Below, one piece after another: positions 27,810-61,160 of a DNA stretch of 64,000 bases. Below the pieces are notes generated by a model. That model did not search any database. It had not been told where the DNA came from and saw nothing but the letters and a program-made list of their open reading frames with translations. The position numbers were made by a program, and so were the translations under genes. This DNA comes from Myxococcales bacterium (lineage in GTDB: Bacteria > Myxococcota > UBA727 > VGSZ01): the NCBI GenBank assembly GCA_023248635.1, contig JAHFED010000005.1, positions 1 through 64,000 of the forward strand. Direction: 5' to 3'. Each line of letters starts with the position of its first letter. Position 1 is the first letter of the stretch.

Positions 27810-28511
27810 CTAACGCCGCAAGCGCAGGGGACGCCGGGCGTGCAGCAAGGGACGGGTGCCGACGTCGTAGACGGCGTCGACGAAGGCGTCTTTGGCGGCC
27901 TCGAGCTCGGCCAGGGGACCACTCAGCAACGCGCCAGCAAAGTTGGTCTCCGACGGCGGCGGGATCCACTTGGCCAAGCGCACCCGAGCGGCCTTGAGGG
28001 CGCGATCCACGGCCAACGCAGCCTCGAGCGGAGGAGCGATCAGATAAGCCAAGGGAGCGCCGACGTCGACGTCGGCCTCGGCAGCCAGGTAGCTGCCAGT
28101 CTCTGCGATCACCTGGGCCAAAAAGGCCGGCCCGCTTTTCGACGCAAAAGGCTCCCCCGCAAAAGTGTGGAAACAGACGCGCTCGCGCAGGTGCTCTTTG
28201 ATCACCCACAGGGCTTCCTCGACGTCGTCGGGATGACGACCGCGCACCACACCCAGCATTTCGCCGGCGTAGGGACCCGAGGCGTGCTTGCTGCCGGCAT
28301 AAAACGAGCGGGCAAAAGCGACGTCGACGTCGGCCTGCTTGGTGGCTTCGTCGAGGGCGATGTAGGTCGAGTCGTCTTGGTCGCAGGTGACCAGTCCCAA
28401 GGCTGGTCCTCCGGGGGTGGCAAACCAGGCGGCGGCGAGATCGGGATGCACGTCGTCGACCTGCCGGCAGGCCAGCAGCGTCGGACGCAGTGCCACCAGC
28501 TCCCTGCTCAA
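27810..28511 (-). CDS. eutL: EutL-like bacterial microcompartment shell protein
   Basis: This 233-residue protein aligns along its full length with EutL, the pseudohexameric (tandem BMC domain) shell protein of ethanolamine-utilisation compartments. Matches include ALGLVTCDQDDSTYIALDEA, TKQADVDVAFARSFYAGSKH, GPYAGEMLGVVRG, FLAQVIAETGSYLAAEADVD, APLAYLIAPPLEAALAVDRA and LAKWIPPPSETNFAGALLSG. The start is a TTG at 28511, giving one residue more than E. coli EutL. A GTG at 28496 with a better ribosome site is an alternative. The gene follows a DUF6918 gene by 4 bases. No other eut or pdu gene, and no other shell protein, is in the window, so a role in a real compartment is uncertain. Confidence 0.9.
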   Translation of the reverse strand: MSRELVALRPTLLACRQVDDVHPDLAAAWFATPGGPALGLVTCDQDDSTYIALDEATKQADVDVAFARSFYAGSKHASGPYAGEMLGVVRGRHPDDVEEALWVIKEHLRERVCFHTFAGEPFASKSGPAFLAQVIAETGSYLAAEADVDVGAPLAYLIAPPLEAALAVDRALKAARVRLAKWIPPPSETNFAGALLSGPLAELEAAKDAFVDAVYDVGTRPLLHARRPLRLRR

Positions 28512-28515
28512 GCGT

Positions 28516-28980
28516 TCACAGGTGAGCAGCGAGGGTGCGGCCGACGCGGGGCACGGCTTCTTCGACGTGTTTTTTCCCTTGGGGCCGCAAGCGCTCGTAG
28601 GCGGACTTCAGGGCGGCGTTTTTGGCCCGGCGGGCGCGGTCGTCGGTGATGCCCAGCAGGGCGTCGGCGACGTCGCCGGCGCGGCGAGACAGCAGATCGG
28701 CAAAGCCCTTGGGATTGCCTTGGGCGGCCTGGTGCTGGGCGTAGAAGGGTTCCAGGCGGCGCACGAAATCGTCGAGGAGGTGGTCCATGGCCTCGCGGAC
28801 GAAGCCGGGCTTCATCGACGACACGATTTTGTAGCTGCCCTTGATGGCCAGGCCCGACAGCCCACTCTTGCTGTCGACTTCCGCCTCGATGAGCTTGACG
28901 CAGTCGTCGAGGATGCGCGGTCGCTTGCTGCGATCCGAGAGCAGGCGGGCTTCGAGGGTGTCGGCGGCGGCATCGGTCAT
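28516..28980 (-). CDS. DUF6918-family protein
   Basis: This 154-residue soluble helical protein matches a family best known to me from actinobacteria: LLSDRSKRPRILDDCVKLIE, AEVDSKSGLSGLAIKGSYKI, VSSMKPGFVREAMDHLLDDF, and FADLLSRRAGDVADALLGIT. Its function is unknown. The gene directly precedes the eutL-like gene with four bases between them, and the two are almost certainly one transcript. The C-terminus is basic (RPQGKKHVEEAVPRVGRTLA). Upstream lies a 505-base gap filled largely by a family D element. Confidence 0.82.
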   Translation of the reverse strand: MTDAAADTLEARLLSDRSKRPRILDDCVKLIEAEVDSKSGLSGLAIKGSYKIVSSMKPGFVREAMDHLLDDFVRRLEPFYAQHQAAQGNPKGFADLLSRRAGDVADALLGITDDRARRAKNAALKSAYERLRPQGKKHVEEAVPRVGRTLAAHL

Positions 28981-29485: not shown

Positions 29486-30262
29486 ATGTCGAAGAAGATC
29501 CTGCTGCCGCTTTTTGCCGTCGTTGCTTCCTTCCTCGCCGTCCAGGCCTGCAACCAACCACCGGTGAGCGAGGGCGAAGGCGATCGAGGCGAAGGCGAAG
29601 GCGAAGAGGGTGAAGGCGAAGGAGACGGCAACGAAGGCGAAGGCGAAGGCGAAGGAGAGCCCGGCGGCTGCGGCGTCGGTCCGGCCTGCGGCGTCGACGA
29701 AGTGTGCACCTCCGTGTTCCAGGCCAGCGGCGGCGGCGCCCCCCCGGCCCCAGCGTGCTTCAAGACCTGCGACGGTGTCGCTGCCTGCACCACCATCTTG
29801 GGCATCCCCGGCGAATGCGTGGCCAGCCCCACCGCCGAAGACGGCAACGTCTGCTTGGCCACCTCGCCCCTCAACGGGCTGTGCGGCAACGAAGCCAACG
29901 CCACTTGCGACGCCGCCGCGACGCCGCTGTGCGTGACTCTCACTTTGCCCCAGGGCAACCTCTCGCTCTGCGCGCGCTTGTGCAGCCCGGCGGACCCCGC
30001 CACCTGTGCCACCGCCGGTTTGCCCCCGGAAGCCTGTGGTTGCGGCGCTGGCATCGGCCTCGGCTGCAGCGACGACATCGCCCTGCAAAGTGGCGACGGC
30101 TTCTGCGCACCCACCACCGACGTCGGCGACGCCTGCGGTCCCAACCTGGCCACGTCGGTGCTCGACTTGTGCACCGACGCCCTGAGCTGCAGCAGCGCCA
30201 CCGGCCCCGGCACCTGCGGCGAAGGCGAGGGTGAAGGCGAGGGCGAAGGCGAAGGCGAGTGA
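29486..30262 (+). CDS. Cys-rich lipoprotein with Gly-Glu linkers at both ends
   Basis: The ATG at 29486, after a GGGAGA site, gives MSKKILLPLFAVVASFLAVQ followed by the lipobox Cys. Next comes a Gly-Glu/Asp linker of about 35 residues. A 180-residue domain with about 20 cysteines follows (GCGVGPACGVDEVC, CGAGIGLGCSDD), probably disulfide-bonded and displayed on the surface. The protein ends in a second pure Gly-Glu tract right up to the stop codon. That is unusual, because such tracts normally link two domains, so this may be a shortened version of a longer protein. A strong terminator follows. The middle is related in style to the N-terminal part of the lipoprotein at 10631-13078. Confidence 0.85.
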   Translation: MSKKILLPLFAVVASFLAVQACNQPPVSEGEGDRGEGEGEEGEGEGDGNEGEGEGEGEPGGCGVGPACGVDEVCTSVFQASGGGAPPAPACFKTCDGVAACTTILGIPGECVASPTAEDGNVCLATSPLNGLCGNEANATCDAAATPLCVTLTLPQGNLSLCARLCSPADPATCATAGLPPEACGCGAGIGLGCSDDIALQSGDGFCAPTTDVGDACGPNLATSVLDLCTDALSCSSATGPGTCGEGEGEGEGEGEGE

Positions 30263-31596: not shown

Positions 31597-31929
31597 ATGG
31601 CCCACGTGATTTCCCAGAAATGCATTACCGAGGTCTACGCGGCCTGCCAGCAGGTGTGCCCCGCCGACTGCATGCAGTACGTCGCCCAGCTCCCCGGTGG
31701 CTACCCAGCCTCGGGACAGCCCATGATGGTCATCGATGCCAACGAGTGCATCGACTGCGGCGCGTGCAAACCAGAGTGTCCCGTCGACGCCATCCTCCCG
31801 GGCACCGATTTCGATGCCTACTGGTCGCAGATCAACGCCAACCTGGGCCCAGCCTACAAGGGCCAGAAGGCTGCTCCCCGGGTCAAGAACGAGCGCCCCC
31901 GCCGCCCCGACAACCAAAATCGTTTTTGA
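31597..31929 (+). CDS. Seven-iron-type bacterial ferredoxin
   Basis: This 110-residue protein starts MAHVISQKCITEVYAACQQV with a GGAGA site. It carries a degenerate first cluster (CITEVYAACQQVCPADC) of the type that holds 3Fe-4S, and a perfect CIDCGACKPECP motif for a 4Fe-4S cluster. The basic C-terminal tail (KGQKAAPRVKNERPRRPDN) is longer than usual. Such proteins carry electrons at low potential for cytosolic reductases; the partner is unknown. Its stop codon merges into the first base pairs of a family A repeat. Confidence 0.92.
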   Translation: MAHVISQKCITEVYAACQQVCPADCMQYVAQLPGGYPASGQPMMVIDANECIDCGACKPECPVDAILPGTDFDAYWSQINANLGPAYKGQKAAPRVKNERPRRPDNQNRF

Positions 31930-32011
31930 AGTTTGGCTGTTCAAGACGCTGGCGCGTCTTGAAGTTTGGATGTTCAAGACGCTGGCACGTCTTGAAGTTT
32001 GGATCCTCCGG
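31930..32011. repeat. Family A palindromes, two copies
   Basis: Two copies at 31940-31963 and 31973-31996, 33 bases apart, with arms TTCAAGACGC and (in the first copy) GCGTCTTGAA. The second has one changed base (ACGTCTTGAA). They immediately follow the ferredoxin stop codon and could act as a transcript-end stem-loop. Confidence 0.88.
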
Positions 32012-34126: not shown

Positions 34127-34240
34127 AGCTTGGATGCTCCGAGATTCAAGACGCTGGCGCGGCCGCACACCGCAGCTCTCGGTTGGGGTTGACGACGACG
34201 GAGCGTCCTGAAGCTTGGATGCTCCGAGATTCAAGACGCT
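34071..34240. repeat. Perfect 85-base tandem duplication
   Basis: Bases 34071-34155 are repeated without a single change at 34156-34240. The unit includes the 3' end of the DUF1328-like gene with its stop codon and ends inside a family A palindrome. The junction falls at GGCGC, shared with the palindrome centre. The identity points to a recent event. Confidence 0.97.
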
Positions 34241-34430
34241 GGCGCGTCTTGCAGTTCTGCTGGTTCAAGACGCTGGCGCGTCTTGAAGTTCTGATGGTTC
34301 AAGACGCCGGCGCGTCTTGCAGTTCTGCTGGTTCAAGACGCTGGCGCGTCTTGAAGTTCTGATGGTTCAAGACGCTGGCGCGTCTTGAAGTTCTGATGGT
34401 TCAAGACGCTGGCGCGTCTTGAAGTTCTGA
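34230..34430. repeat. Family A array, six units with exact 34-base period
   Basis: Palindromic cores start at 34230, 34264, 34298, 34332, 34366 and 34400, each TTCAAGACGC plus a four-base loop plus GCGTCTTGAA or GCGTCTTGCA. They are separated by a 10-base spacer GTTCTGATGG or GTTCTGCTGG. The array lies between the two tiny membrane protein genes and reads in the same orientation as they do. Confidence 0.97.
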
Positions 34431-56208: not shown

Positions 56209-56471
56209 ATCGGAGGCGGTTATCCCGCAAGACCCGGGGGATGTCCAACTGGGTTGGTCGTGCTTTTTGACGACGTCGTCCGAGCACCCGCTTGGGGCGG
56301 AGGGCGCGCGTCGCCAAAACCAGGAGCCCGGACCGCGCCGACAGGACAATTGCCCGCCCGGCCTGAGCGCCGAGAACATCGATGCGCGGCCGATCTGGTG
56401 ACGTGGACGCCTCGGGCGCTCGCTTCTGGGTGACGCGGAAGCGGGCGGGCACAAGCAGCCGGTGCGACGGA

Positions 56472-56867
56472 TCAGCCTTCGGTGCCCGATCGCTTGGCTT
56501 CGCGCTCGAGCTCTTCTTTGTAGGTGACGCTGTGCCGGGTCCACGGGCGCAGCTTGAGGCGGGCATAGCCAATGGGCTCGTCGGTGCCTTCGCAGAGGCC
56601 GTAGGTGCCGTTTTTCACCTTGTCGAGGGCGCGCTCGACCTCGCGCAGCAGCTTGGCATCGCGGTCCATCAGGCGGGTCTCGAGGGCGACTTCGGCGTCT
56701 TCGGAGGCCTGGTCTGCTTCGTCGCCTTGGCGGGTCTCTGACTGGGCCGAGCCGGCCCGCCGCGCCTTGAGGGCCTCCATGAGCTCGCCGCGCTTTTCCT
56801 CGAGCATCGAGGTGAGCTCTTTCACCTGTGCGGGGGTCAGGTCTTTTTCGCGAGCACGGGCAGCCAT
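56472..56867 (-). CDS. DksA/TraR-family protein with incomplete zinc finger
   Basis: This 131-residue protein starts MAARAREKDLTPAQVKELTS after a near-perfect GGAGGAAG site. It has the coiled-coil of DksA-like RNA polymerase modulators and the C-terminal globular part GTYGLCEGTDEPIGYARLKL with RPWTRHSVTYKEELE. Of the four zinc-binding cysteines of DksA only the first remains; the others are replaced by Thr or Ser/Thr. The conserved Asp residues at the coiled-coil tip cannot be placed with certainty. Such zinc-independent forms occur in other bacteria (for example DksA2). The 263 bases downstream, before the cytochrome-like gene, hold nothing recognisable. Confidence 0.85.
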   Translation of the reverse strand: MAARAREKDLTPAQVKELTSMLEEKRGELMEALKARRAGSAQSETRQGDEADQASEDAEVALETRLMDRDAKLLREVERALDKVKNGTYGLCEGTDEPIGYARLKLRPWTRHSVTYKEELEREAKRSGTEG

Positions 56868-56991
56868 GGCTTCCTCCAACTTCGACGGGCGCGGGAACAT
56901 ACGCGCAAAGGGGTTCACGCGCAACGTTGGAAGCGTGCCCCACGACGTCGTCAAGCACGGGCAGGTCGCCGCCTCGCTCGCTCGCGCTCTG

Positions 56992-58005
56992 TTAGTTTTT
57001 CCGGGTGGCGTCGGGCGCTGGTCCCCCAGGGTCGACCCCGGCGCCCCAACGGACCGGCCCGGGCTTGATGTCGGGCTTCTTTGGATCCGAGATGATCACC
57101 TCGCGCCGCACCTCCCGGCGCCCGCTTGGGTCCTGTACCTCGATCTCAAGGTCGTTTCTGCCGTAGGCCAAGGACACCTGCATCGCGAACTGTCCCCGCT
57201 CGTTCGCCGTCGTCGTCTTGTCGCCGACGCGCGCGACCGCACCCGGGGTCGTCGTGCCCCTCAAGGTCGCCGACGTTTGGTTGGTCTGGTTCGTCGCCAG
57301 CGGCACCATCTTGAGAAACAGACTCGTGGCGACCTCCACAGGCACGGTGGGAGGGGCTCCAGCGGCGACCCTCGACTCCTGGCCCGCGGTGACGTCGACG
57401 CTTTCATGGGTGGTGGTCGTCGTCAGCTTCACTGTTCCTGTCGTCGTCGCCACTCCCAGGCCGCCGTCGCCGTCGGTGACCACGCCGAAGGTGCCGCCGT
57501 GGGACTCGGCTTGGGCGTCACCGGTCCGGCTCTGCACCATCAGCACTTTGCCGTCGACGACCTTGCCGCTGGCTTGTCCTCGATCGAGCCGCACGCGAGC
57601 GCCGGTGGGCGTCAGCTCGCGGACGTTCAACTCCGAGCGCGACGACAAGCGCATCTCGACACCATCGCCGATGCTCAGGGTGGCCTCGGCACCGCGCTTG
57701 GTCTGGAGGCTGTCTTCGACCGCAAGCACCGAGCCGATGGCGGCGTCGACCCATCCCTTTTCGTCGTTGCCGCGGCGCACCTGCACCGTGCCGTGCACCG
57801 CCTTGAGGACGGCGTTTGGAATCGCGGGCGGGAGGGGGACCTCGAAGTCATGCGGCGGCGGCGGCGGTGGCGGCGGTTTCGGTCGTGGTGGATCGACGTC
57901 AGGGGTCGACGCCACGCGCTCGTCGAACACCCGCTGGTAGGCGATGCCGGCGCCGAGCACGACCAGCACCGTCAAGAGCAGGACGACGACGACGGATCGG
58001 GTCAA
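56992..58005 (-). CDS. FecR-domain membrane-anchored protein
   Basis: This 337-residue protein has one N-terminal membrane helix (VVVVLLLTVLVVLGAGIAY), a Pro-rich linker (KPPPPPPPPHDFEVPLPP) and a FecR domain. The FecR domain reads LKAVHGTVQVRRGNDEKGWV, LAVEDSLQTKRGAEATLSIG and VEMRLSSRSELNVRELTPTG. A C-terminal bacterial Ig-like domain contains ATLRGTTTPGAVARVGDKTT. FecR domains act as periplasmic sensors or structural modules. The TTG start at 58005 overlaps the TGA of the response regulator gene, so the two are translationally coupled and probably share a pathway. Confidence 0.85.
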   Translation of the reverse strand: MTRSVVVVLLLTVLVVLGAGIAYQRVFDERVASTPDVDPPRPKPPPPPPPPHDFEVPLPPAIPNAVLKAVHGTVQVRRGNDEKGWVDAAIGSVLAVEDSLQTKRGAEATLSIGDGVEMRLSSRSELNVRELTPTGARVRLDRGQASGKVVDGKVLMVQSRTGDAQAESHGGTFGVVTDGDGGLGVATTTGTVKLTTTTTHESVDVTAGQESRVAAGAPPTVPVEVATSLFLKMVPLATNQTNQTSATLRGTTTPGAVARVGDKTTTANERGQFAMQVSLAYGRNDLEIEVQDPSGRREVRREVIISDPKKPDIKPGPVRWGAGVDPGGPAPDATRKN

Positions 58006-58733
58006 CGCGGGGGCCCGATCAGGCCCCGATCGACGATCGCTGCTCCGCCGGCATCGATTAGTCGCAAGACGTCCTGGAAGGAGGCTCCAGCGTCGACGAG
58101 CACCAACCCCGTGCGAGGTGCGCGCGGGACCGCCAGGAGTGCTGCGACGTCGGTGCCGATCAGCACCTGCGCCTGACGGGCATCGTCGACGATGCGAGCT
58201 CCTGCTGCGCTCAAGGTGCCCACCAGGTCGGGGTCGGCGGCACCGTCGACGACGGCGACGTCGATGCCGGCGAGGGGCTCGGGCAAGCCACTCAGCGCGC
58301 GGGCGACTTTGCGCGCCATCGGTGGACCCTGTCGGCGATCGGCGAGATTGGCGTCGAGGACGCGCTGGATGAGCTCGACGGCGTGGCTCAGCGATCGGAA
58401 GGGTTTCACCAGGTAGCCATCGGCGCCGTCGGCGAGGGCCTGCAGCGCGCTGTCGCGGCTCGGGTAGCCGGTCACCATCATGACGCCCATAAGCCTCTTG
58501 CCGCGACGCTCGTTGGCCCGAACCTGCGCGAGCAGATCGAGCCCACTTTGGCGTGGGAGGTTCTTGTCGGTCAGCACCAGGTCGAAGTCGCCGCCGTCGT
58601 CGAGCCGCTCCAGGGCCTGCTCGGCGCTGCCGACGGCCGTGACCAGGTGCCCGGCGTCGCCGAGCACCGAGCCCAGGATCCGCTGCAGCGTCGGCTCATC
58701 TTCAACCAGGAGAATGTTCTTCGGTGAGGTCAT
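58002..58733 (-). CDS. Response regulator receiver protein
   Basis: This 243-residue protein begins MTSPKNILLVEDEPTLQRIL and has an intact receiver domain: the acidic pair in VEDE, the phosphorylated Asp in FDLVLTDKNLPRQSG (about residue 55), Thr in MMVTGYPS and Lys in DGYLVKPFRSL. Residues 130-243 form a second alpha/beta segment (EPLAGIDVAVVDGAADPDLV) without a DNA-binding motif. It could be a decayed second receiver. It lacks an obvious output and may signal through protein contact. Its stop overlaps the FecR-domain gene start. An AAGGAG site lies 12 bases before the ATG. Confidence 0.9.
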   Translation of the reverse strand: MTSPKNILLVEDEPTLQRILGSVLGDAGHLVTAVGSAEQALERLDDGGDFDLVLTDKNLPRQSGLDLLAQVRANERRGKRLMGVMMVTGYPSRDSALQALADGADGYLVKPFRSLSHAVELIQRVLDANLADRRQGPPMARKVARALSGLPEPLAGIDVAVVDGAADPDLVGTLSAAGARIVDDARQAQVLIGTDVAALLAVPRAPRTGLVLVDAGASFQDVLRLIDAGGAAIVDRGLIGPPR

Positions 58734-58749: not shown

Positions 58750-59036
58750 TTCGAGACGCCTTGGCGTCTTGAAGCTCTGATGGTCCAAAGGCCGCCGCGC
58801 TTGCAGCGCCAGTGGAAACCGCGACGCCTGTCGAAGTGTCGCTGCTGCCAGCGCTCGACCGACGCCGTGAGACGCCGCCTCAGCCTTCTGCTGTGGAACC
58901 TAGCAGCGCGTCTCGGCCGGCGCGCGTTTGGGCGGAGCACAGAACGTCTCGGCGTTTTTCGGGTCGAGATCGTCGCGTTACCATTGCGGACCGGCGAGAC
59001 TTCAAGACGCGCCAGCGCCTTGAACATCCAAACTTC
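58750..59036. repeat. Family A palindromes flanking a 413-base gap
   Basis: One copy at about 58751-58775 (GAGACGCC/GGCGTCTTGA) lies just upstream of the response regulator. Another at about 59001-59026 (TTCAAGACGCGCCAGCGCCT) is in opposite orientation and precedes the RRM gene. Between them no gene or clear motif is seen, apart from an 8-base inverted repeat GTGGCTGC/GCAGCCAC at about 59052-59073. Confidence 0.75.
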
Positions 59037-59146
59037 AACCCCCCGAGCCAAGGTGGCTGCTTGTCGCAGCCACGCGGGACCGGCGAGCGTTGCGCCGGAA
59101 TCCGGCCAGGCAACGACGGCGTCTGGCCCCACCTGTCGAGGAACCC

Positions 59147-59542
59147 GTGGCAAACCGCCTCTACGTCGGCAACCTTCCTTACTCGTCCACCGACCAATCC
59201 CTGCGCGAGCTCTTCTTGCCCCACGGCGAAGTGGTCTCCGCCAGCGTCGTCGTCGATCGGGGCACCGGCCGCTCCCGAGGTTTTGGGTTCGTTGAAATGG
59301 CGTCGGCGGCAGCGGCGGCGAAGGCCACCGAAGCGATGAACGGCTTCCTGCTCGATGGCCGCCCCCTGACGGTGAACGAAGCCCAGCAACGCACCGCTGG
59401 AGGCAGCCGGGGCGGACCGCGGCGAACCTTCGACGGCGCCGGCACCTTTGGAGCCGGAGCTGCAGGCGGACGCGGCTTCAACGGGGACACTGGCGGTGGG
59501 GGCAAGCGCGGCCGCAACGGTGGGGGCCGTGGCGACTGGTGA
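59147..59542 (+). CDS. RRM-type RNA-binding protein, Gly-rich tail
   Basis: This 131-residue protein starts at a GTG with a GAGGA site and is a single RNA-recognition motif: RNP2 RLYVGNLPYSS at the start and RNP1 RSRGFGFVEMAS at about residue 47. A Gly/Arg-rich tail follows (AGGRGFNGDTGGGGKRGRNG). Such small RRM proteins occur in cyanobacteria and proteobacteria, often as cold-induced RNA chaperones. The gene lies between family A palindromes on both sides, which if transcribed would give structured RNA. Confidence 0.93.
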   Translation: MANRLYVGNLPYSSTDQSLRELFLPHGEVVSASVVVDRGTGRSRGFGFVEMASAAAAAKATEAMNGFLLDGRPLTVNEAQQRTAGGSRGGPRRTFDGAGTFGAGAAGGRGFNGDTGGGGKRGRNGGGRGDW

Positions 59543-59599
59543 CAGCAGCGAAGGACCATGCGCTCAGGTGACGACGTCAAGACCGCGCGCGAGCCCAGT

Positions 59600-59786
59600 T
59601 TGGATGTTCGAGACGCTGGCCCGTCTTGAAGTCTTGATGTTCAAGGCGCCGGCGCGTCTTGAAGTTTGGCTGTTCAAGACGCTGGCGCGTCTTGAAGCGT
59701 GAACGTTCGAGACGCAGGCGCGTCTTGAAGTTCTGCTGGTTCAAGACGCTGGCGCCTCGTGAAGTTTCCTGGTTCAAGACGCTGGT
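59600..59786. repeat. Family A array, six units
   Basis: Cores start at about 59607, 59640, 59673, 59706, 59740 and 59773, giving spacings of 33, 33, 33, 34 and 33 bases. Arms vary (TTCGAGACGC, TTCAAGGCGC, TTCAAGACGC), and spacers alternate between GTTTGG.T and GTTCTGCTGG types. It lies between the RRM gene and purU. The last unit is partly decayed. Confidence 0.93.
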
Positions 59787-60785: not shown

Positions 60786-61160
60786 TCTCAAAGCGCCAGC
60801 GTCTTGAACCGGCGAACCGTCAAGACGCGGCGCAAAGCAGAAAGCACTCCAAGACGCGACAGCGTCTTGAACCAACTTCAAGACGCGCCAGCGTCTTGAA
60901 CAGCCAACTTCAAGACGCGCCAGCGTCTTGAACAGCCAAACTTCAAGACGCGCCAGCGTCTTGAACAGCCAAACTTCAAGACGCGCCAGCGCCTTGAACA
61001 TCCAAACTTCAAGACGCGCCAGCGCCTTGAACATCCAAACTTCAAGACGCGCCAGCGCCTTGAACATCCAAACTTCAAGACGCCTGCGTCTTGAACATCC
61101 AAACTTCAAGACGCGCCAGCGTTTTGAACATCAAACCTCAAGACGCAGGCGTCTTGAAGA
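60786..61160. repeat. Family A array, about eleven units, mostly 33-base period
   Basis: Full cores start at about 60877, 60909, 60942, 60975, 61008, 61041, 61074, 61105 and 61137, with decayed copies before 60877. The orientation is the reverse of the arrays at 34230 and 59600. Spacers read CAGCCAAAC or CATCCAAAC. The last two or three units have a loop shortened by two bases yet keep perfect arms. It fills the gap between convergent purU and the VWA lipoprotein gene. Confidence 0.96.

What the first reader, a model, noticed from the sequence alone, without database searches (positions are those of the whole stretch)
27810..28980. Solitary EutL shell protein in an operon with DUF6918
A full-length EutL homologue is encoded with a small helical protein of unknown function and no microcompartment enzymes or other shell proteins. 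Shell proteins normally occur in large operons. This could be a remnant, a satellite locus, or an adapted pseudohexamer with a non-compartment role such as metabolite binding.
Basis: partly seen in the sequence, partly recalled or inferred. Interest (0 to 1): 0.66.

Follow-up and report, generated by a model that had tools for sequence, protein, structure and literature searches.

The report
Displaced EutL gene of dispersed microcompartment
This is the ethanolamine-type shell protein of an ordinary bacterial microcompartment whose genes are scattered over the chromosome, and in this one genus the shell gene has moved away from its usual enzyme neighbours, so it looks alone but is not.

Summary
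An intact EutL gene (27810-28511, minus) follows a DUF6918 gene (28516-28980, minus), and no other shell or eut gene was found on this contig. Elsewhere in the same genome are a hexamer, two more trimers, three vertex pentamers, an EutE-type aldehyde dehydrogenase and ethanolamine ammonia-lyase (EutB, EutC), on five other contigs. The hexamer, one trimer and one pentamer have their best natural PDB match in the Haliangium ochraceum (HO) shell. EutL was read directly behind eutC in 28 of the 34 phylum genomes that have EutL (195 searched), and in 12 of 12 loci from a second collection. The clear exceptions are the three genomes of the window's own genus, and there alone it follows DUF6918. The EutL tree nests the genus among operonic EutLs, so the gene moved. 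DUF6918 occurs in 22 of 39 genomes, mostly without EutL. HO compartments with satellite 'EUT modules' (EutABC plus EutL) are in print (Sutter 2021). This is a further split version, without a recognisable EutA. Most likely EutL is the ethanolamine-entry tile of that shell. Low interest; a new member of a known kind.

The parts
27810..28511 (-). EutL-type trimeric shell protein (BMC-T, 233 aa, TTG start)
   Evidence: phmmer to EutL 3gfh E 1e-50; NF011934 over cut-off; PF00936 in two stretches; fold model and PDB match to EutL 4tlh, TM 0.85/0.90
28516..28980 (-). DUF6918 (PF21893) protein, 154 aa, upstream neighbour of EutL; probably an incidental host gene
   Evidence: PF21893 E 3.6e-46; start placed at 28980; pairing only in this genus
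28512..28515 (-). 4-base gap between the DUF6918 stop and the EutL TTG start, consistent with co-transcription or coupled translation
   Evidence: sequence printed

Best explanation
The gene makes the EutL trimer (a flat pseudohexamer) of a single, dispersed HO-type microcompartment. The core shell (BMC-H, an HO-5816-like BMC-T, BMC-P) and an EutE-type aldehyde dehydrogenase lie on contig C5; a PduT-like BMC-T on C94; the other two BMC-P on C9 and C64, the latter beside a class II aldolase; EutB/EutC on C42. Ethanolamine would enter through EutL, be split by EutBC to acetaldehyde and ammonia inside the shell, and the acetaldehyde would be turned into acetyl-CoA by the dehydrogenase. EutL was the third gene of a eutB-eutC-eutL operon and moved behind DUF6918 in the ancestor of this genus; DUF6918 now at most supplies its transcription. 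Shown: presence, intactness, co-occurrence, usual gene order, derived position. Inferred: incorporation into the HO-type shell, transport role, co-transcription.
For: Own genome holds the other parts. PDB matches: BMC-H to HO-5815 E 3.4e-41, BMC-T to HO-5816 E 1.1e-70, BMC-P to 5v74 E 1.5e-32. EutL found in 34 of 195 phylum genomes; 32 of these 34 have a BMC-H-grade match against 39 of the 161 without EutL, and 32 of 34 have EutB against 63 of 161 (Fisher, not corrected for relatedness). eutC read directly upstream of eutL in 28 of 34 (27 of 30 loci, plus G020), and in 12 of 12 genome-contig loci, one of which is G003 again. The EutL tree puts G000+G001 (100/96) with operonic G003, G171, G133 and G167 (98/88), inside the operonic set. 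One EutL per genome (G002 as two contig-end pieces). EutC and the dehydrogenase carry similar N-terminal extensions. The same arrangement as a kind is in print: Sutter 2021, section 'Satellite loci' read whole.
Against: EutL is 45 kb or more from eutBC even if their contigs abut (positions; contig lengths), so co-regulation is not shown. No full-length EutA was found in any of 39 genomes, although the published module includes it. The hydrophobic-moment test of the two presumed targeting helices of this genome was not significant (302 and 381 of 2000 shuffles as good). Phosphotransacylase and alcohol dehydrogenase were not searched for. TIGR04502 is below its cut-off. G001, same genus, has EutL but no detected EutB or EutC. 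G025 has EutL and EutBC but no other shell-protein match.
Confidence: 0.85

Rival explanations
1. EutL and DUF6918 form a functional pair: DUF6918 is a helical partner, adaptor or regulator of the EutL tile, and the gene was recruited to it.
For: The pair, with a divergent GEGEGE-type lipoprotein gene upstream, is kept in all three genomes of the genus although the downstream neighbours differ (TPR protein in G000, a different large gene in G001, an ABC-transporter-like gene in G002; names by sequence).
Against: DUF6918 is present in 22 of 39 genomes, EutL in 7 of 39, and they are neighbours only in the 3 genomes of the genus. DUF6918 sits in other contexts elsewhere, such as behind an MlaD-like gene in G003 and G006, and the control search found it in Corynebacterium glutamicum, where the BMC search was silent.
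Confidence: 0.07
2. EutL is a remnant of a lost ethanolamine compartment.
For: No other eut or shell match on the contig.
Against: Intact frame; 37 columns are invariant over 18 EutL rows that include this one, E. coli and C. perfringens; NG86 dN/dS 0.26-0.36 in pairs with the window's gene; shell and eutBC present elsewhere.
Confidence: 0.03
3. EutL works outside any compartment, for example as a free metabolite-binding trimer.
For: In G025, a genome given as 92% complete, EutL is the only BMC-domain match and there is no EutN match, while eutBC-eutL is intact.
Against: In the window's genome a whole shell set is present. G025 EutC keeps the N-terminal extension, as if a shell existed, and its draft assembly may lack the loci. 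32 of 34 EutL genomes have a BMC-H-grade match.
Confidence: 0.05

Closest known systems
Satellite 'EUT module' of HO, SPU3 and SPU6 microcompartments (Sutter et al. 2021, PMC8217296; section read whole)
   Same: EutB, EutC and a EutL-type BMC-Tsp away from the main HO-type shell locus
   Different: No recognisable EutA, and in this genus EutL is itself separated from eutBC and sits behind DUF6918
Haliangium ochraceum (HO) microcompartment
   Same: BMC-H like HO-5815, BMC-T like HO-5816, BMC-P like 5v74, aldehyde dehydrogenase, three BMC-P; two BMC-P plus an aldolase together in the related genome G003
   Different: Here the two satellite BMC-P are split over two contigs and the PduT-like BMC-T is apart; EutL has no counterpart among the HO shell proteins that I recall
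EutL of E. coli and Clostridium perfringens
   Same: Same length and fold, 40-44% identity in the structural alignments
   Different: Those are recalled to lie inside large eut operons
FRAG microcompartments (Sutter et al. 2021, passages)
   Same: Shell genes at as many as six places, with a BMC-P triplet
   Different: Here the core shell proteins match the HO type; the published type models were not at hand

Membership tests
EutL (BMC-Tsp) | Sequence match to EutL over the full length, over a curated cut-off | tested here: met
   NF011934 230.9 of 198 bits; but TIGR04502 240.2 of 300; 3gfh E 1e-50
EutL (BMC-Tsp) | EutL fold of two BMC domains | tested here: met
   Model pLDDT 85.1, first 13 PDB matches all EutL
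EutL (BMC-Tsp) | Trimer with a gated pore, assembled in a shell | not testable with these tools
   needs protein; the segment 72-81 is of low confidence in the model
HO-type microcompartment | HO-like BMC-H, BMC-T and BMC-P with an aldehyde dehydrogenase | tested here: met
HO-type microcompartment | BMC-P triplet | tested here: met
   three PF03319 matches in own genome; clade membership of each was not tested by a tree
Satellite EUT module | EutB and EutC present | tested here: met
   C42:56385-58585
Satellite EUT module | EutA present | tested here: not met
   only partial matches of 18-38 bits in 35 of 39 genomes, in frames of 342-608 aa
Satellite EUT module | EutL next to EutBC | tested here: not met
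   own genome: different contigs; met in 28 of 34 EutL genomes as read
Classical EUT1/EUT2 locus | Many eut genes and shell genes in one operon | tested here: not met
   parts on six contigs
Satellite locus (Axen 2014 definition) | Only PF00936 or only PF03319 locally, with a main locus elsewhere | tested here: met
   definition in passages of PMC4207490

The most novel reading that the evidence does not exclude
EutL can be kept by selection without a compartment: in the G025 lineage EutL and eutBC persist as the only microcompartment genes found, and in the window's genus EutL has left eutBC and been held next to DUF6918. EutL would then act as a free ethanolamine-responsive trimer, with DUF6918 as a partner in the window's genus.
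Probability: 0.04. Interest if true: 0.6.

Novelty: new member of a known kind. Interest (0 to 1): 0.22.

Why it matters
It removes an apparent oddity and gives a clear case of a microcompartment whose genes were pulled apart stepwise: eutL from eutBC, the BMC-P pair from each other, and the PduT-like trimer from the core. Gene clustering is therefore not needed to keep such an organelle, and annotation that calls a lone shell gene an orphan can mislead. The tight link of EutL to EutB (32 of 34 EutL genomes have EutB) supports EutL as an ethanolamine-specific add-on tile to a general shell.

Tried and rejected
Non-compartment EutL in this genome: rejected because the shell set and eutBC are present. 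Remnant: rejected on intactness and dN/dS (the YN00 method failed there, so NG86 only, and synonymous sites are near saturation). A DUF6918-EutL pair as a general association: rejected. EutA: the matches occur in 35 of 39 genomes, including those without EutB, so I read them as other actin-fold proteins (recalled, not tested). Targeting-helix statistics: inconclusive for this genome; that script stopped on an error before its last seven entries. Literature: no paper in the library names DUF6918; 'EutL, Myxococc, microcompartment' gave 3 papers, seen as a listing only, none on this by title; the EutL ethanolamine-binding study that I recall was not in the listings, so the substrate-gating role rests on recall and on Sutter 2021. 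Phage, plasmid and viral collections were not searched, because nothing pointed to a mobile element at the EutL gene.

Full report
WHAT IS THERE. The window lies in contig C96 (174 kb) of a draft genome of 6.53 Mb in 135 contigs, 96.7% complete. The minus-strand gene at 27810-28511 encodes 233 aa that match EutL over the whole length: E. coli EutL 3gfh E 1e-50, C. perfringens EutL 4edi E 6e-49, NCBIfam EutL NF011934 over its cut-off, TIGR04502 under its cut-off. A model built from the window protein and 11 rows of named loci has mean pLDDT 85.1, and its 13 best PDB matches are all EutL. Upstream on the same strand, 28516-28980, lies a DUF6918 protein of 154 aa. Four bases separate its stop from a TTG start of EutL; an in-frame GTG five codons further in is an alternative start.

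NOT SOLITARY. The same genome has four further PF00936 matches in three proteins outside the window: BMC-H and a BMC-T on contig C5, and a tandem BMC-T on C94. EutN-type BMC-P lie on C5, C9 and C64. EutB and EutC lie together on C42 at 56385-58585. C5 also carries an aldehyde dehydrogenase of the NCBIfam subfamily NF011927, PRK15398 (645.7 of 403 bits; that this is the EutE type is recalled), beside BMC-P, BMC-H and BMC-T. By phmmer against the PDB, the C5 BMC-H has HO-5815 as its best natural match (3.4e-41; an engineered tandem scores higher), the C5 BMC-T has HO-5816 (1.1e-70) and the C5 BMC-P has 5v74 (1.5e-32). The C94 trimer is closest to PduT-like chains, with 5dih close behind, and the C9 and C64 pentamers give weaker matches. 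The C64 pentamer is followed by a class II aldolase. The shell is thus of the Haliangium ochraceum type, and the parts lie on six contigs, EutL's included.

WHERE EUTL NORMALLY SITS. Among 39 genomes (the own genome and 38 relatives), EutL occurs in 7, DUF6918 in 22, EutB in 10 and EutC in 9. In the same-family genome G003 and in G017, G020 and G025 the order is eutB-eutC-eutL. In the window's genus EutL follows DUF6918 in G000, in G001, and in G002 where EutL is cut by contig ends; eutBC is elsewhere in G000 and G002 and was not found in G001. Across the 195 held genomes of the phylum, own genome included, EutL was found in 34. I read eutC directly upstream of eutL in 27 of the 30 loci fetched and in G020, so in 28 of 34. 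Of the other six: G000, G001 and G002 are the window's genus; in G094 eutC and eutL lie at two contig ends; G173 and G191 were not read, but eutB and eutL lie about 1 kb apart on one strand. In an independent scan of named genomes all 12 loci that encode a EutL relative have eutC upstream, 11 of them close and one (L110) about 1.7 kb away; one of the 12, L107, is G003 again.

THE MOVE IS DERIVED. In a tree of 42 EutL rows, G000 and G001 group together (100/96) and with operonic EutLs of G003, G171, G133 and G167 (98/88), inside a larger group of operonic EutLs. G002 (cut), G094, G173, G191 and L117 were not in the tree. Each genome has one EutL. So the DUF6918-linked EutL is the former third gene of eutBC-eutL, not a second copy. 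Two further separations hold in the same genus: the pair of BMC-P beside the aldolase, together in G003 (L160), is split in G000, G001 and G002 (loci L079, L080, L161-L164); and the PduT-like BMC-T, next to the dehydrogenase in G005 with one gene between, lies on separate contigs in G000 and G002 and about 5 kb off in G003.

WHAT IT DOES. EutL tracks both the shell and the ammonia-lyase. A BMC-H-grade match (best E 1e-26 or better) is present in 32 of 34 EutL genomes and in 39 of the 161 without EutL; any EutB in 32 of 34 and in 63 of 161 (Fisher, relatedness not corrected). The two EutL genomes without a BMC-H-grade match are G025 and G173; those without EutB are G001 and G093. EutC and the dehydrogenase of these genomes start with similar short, probably helical extensions followed by a low-complexity linker, as expected of signals for uptake into the shell; a moment test on this genome's two sequences was not significant. 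The best reading is that ethanolamine enters through EutL and is cleaved by encapsulated EutBC to acetaldehyde, which the dehydrogenase turns into acetyl-CoA. Sutter et al. 2021 propose just such an entry role for the EutL of 'EUT modules' that extend HO, SPU3 and SPU6 compartments (section read whole). Of the published module EutB, EutC and EutL are met and EutA is not: only partial matches of 18-38 bits were found, in 35 of 39 genomes whether or not they have EutB.

DUF6918. The family is widespread without EutL (22 against 7 of 39), is found in the control genome of Corynebacterium glutamicum where the BMC search is silent, and has varied neighbours. In the window's genus the pair is kept although the genes downstream of EutL differ. 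That is enough for shared transcription and too little for a partner role. Its single-sequence fold is of low confidence, and the library holds no paper that names it.

AGAINST THE READING. Co-regulation is not shown; EutA is missing; G001 shows EutL without detected eutBC; G025 shows EutL and eutBC with no other shell gene. The own genome and these relatives are drafts in many contigs. The closing enzymes (phosphotransacylase, alcohol dehydrogenase) were not searched for.

VERDICT. The satellite reading is right; the remnant and non-compartment readings are not supported. It is a new, more scattered member of a published kind.

Noticed in passing
G025 (L078:5302-8263): EutL and eutBC are intact, but EutL is the genome's only BMC-domain match and no EutN was found. 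EutC keeps its N-terminal extension. Either an assembly gap or an EutL without a shell.
   Followed up: partly
L095:11069-12523 and L096:9798-11246: A 484-aa protein of unknown function (weak vWA-like match) follows eutC in G000 and G002, where EutL used to be; not seen in the other loci searched.
   Followed up: partly
L007:9138-10214, L070, L082, L101: An inorganic pyrophosphatase gene (recalled name, by sequence) is paired with the PduT-like BMC-T in G000, G002, G003 and G005.
   Followed up: partly
L151, L152 (G095) and L157 (G094): In the g57 genomes eutB is separated from eutC, by about 18 kb in G095 and 7 kb in G094: a second, independent opening of the module.
   Followed up: partly
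G037:C24:76351-78471 and similar places: In many phylum genomes without EutL, EutB scores lower (about 410-480 bits) and lies in a long open frame; in G037 EutC lies in a frame of the same length (782 aa), so EutB-EutC fusions are likely.
   Followed up: no
L149:5664-8596 and L059: DUF6918 follows an MlaD-like gene in G003 (MlaE-MlaF-MlaD order, names by sequence) and in G006: a possible clue to DUF6918.
   Followed up: no
window 31927-31977, 34231-34430, 59000-59740, 60876-61116: Clusters of a roughly 33-base repeat (core CGCTGGCGCGTCTTGAAG, 14 copies of the 18-mer in the window).
   Followed up: no
L006:3319-4707: A transposase-like gene (recalled, IS4-like by sequence) lies next to the BMC-T gene of the main shell locus on C5.
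   Followed up: no
window 29486-30262 and several other places: Many secreted-looking proteins with long GEGEGE runs; one lies divergently upstream of DUF6918 in all three genomes of the genus.
   Followed up: no
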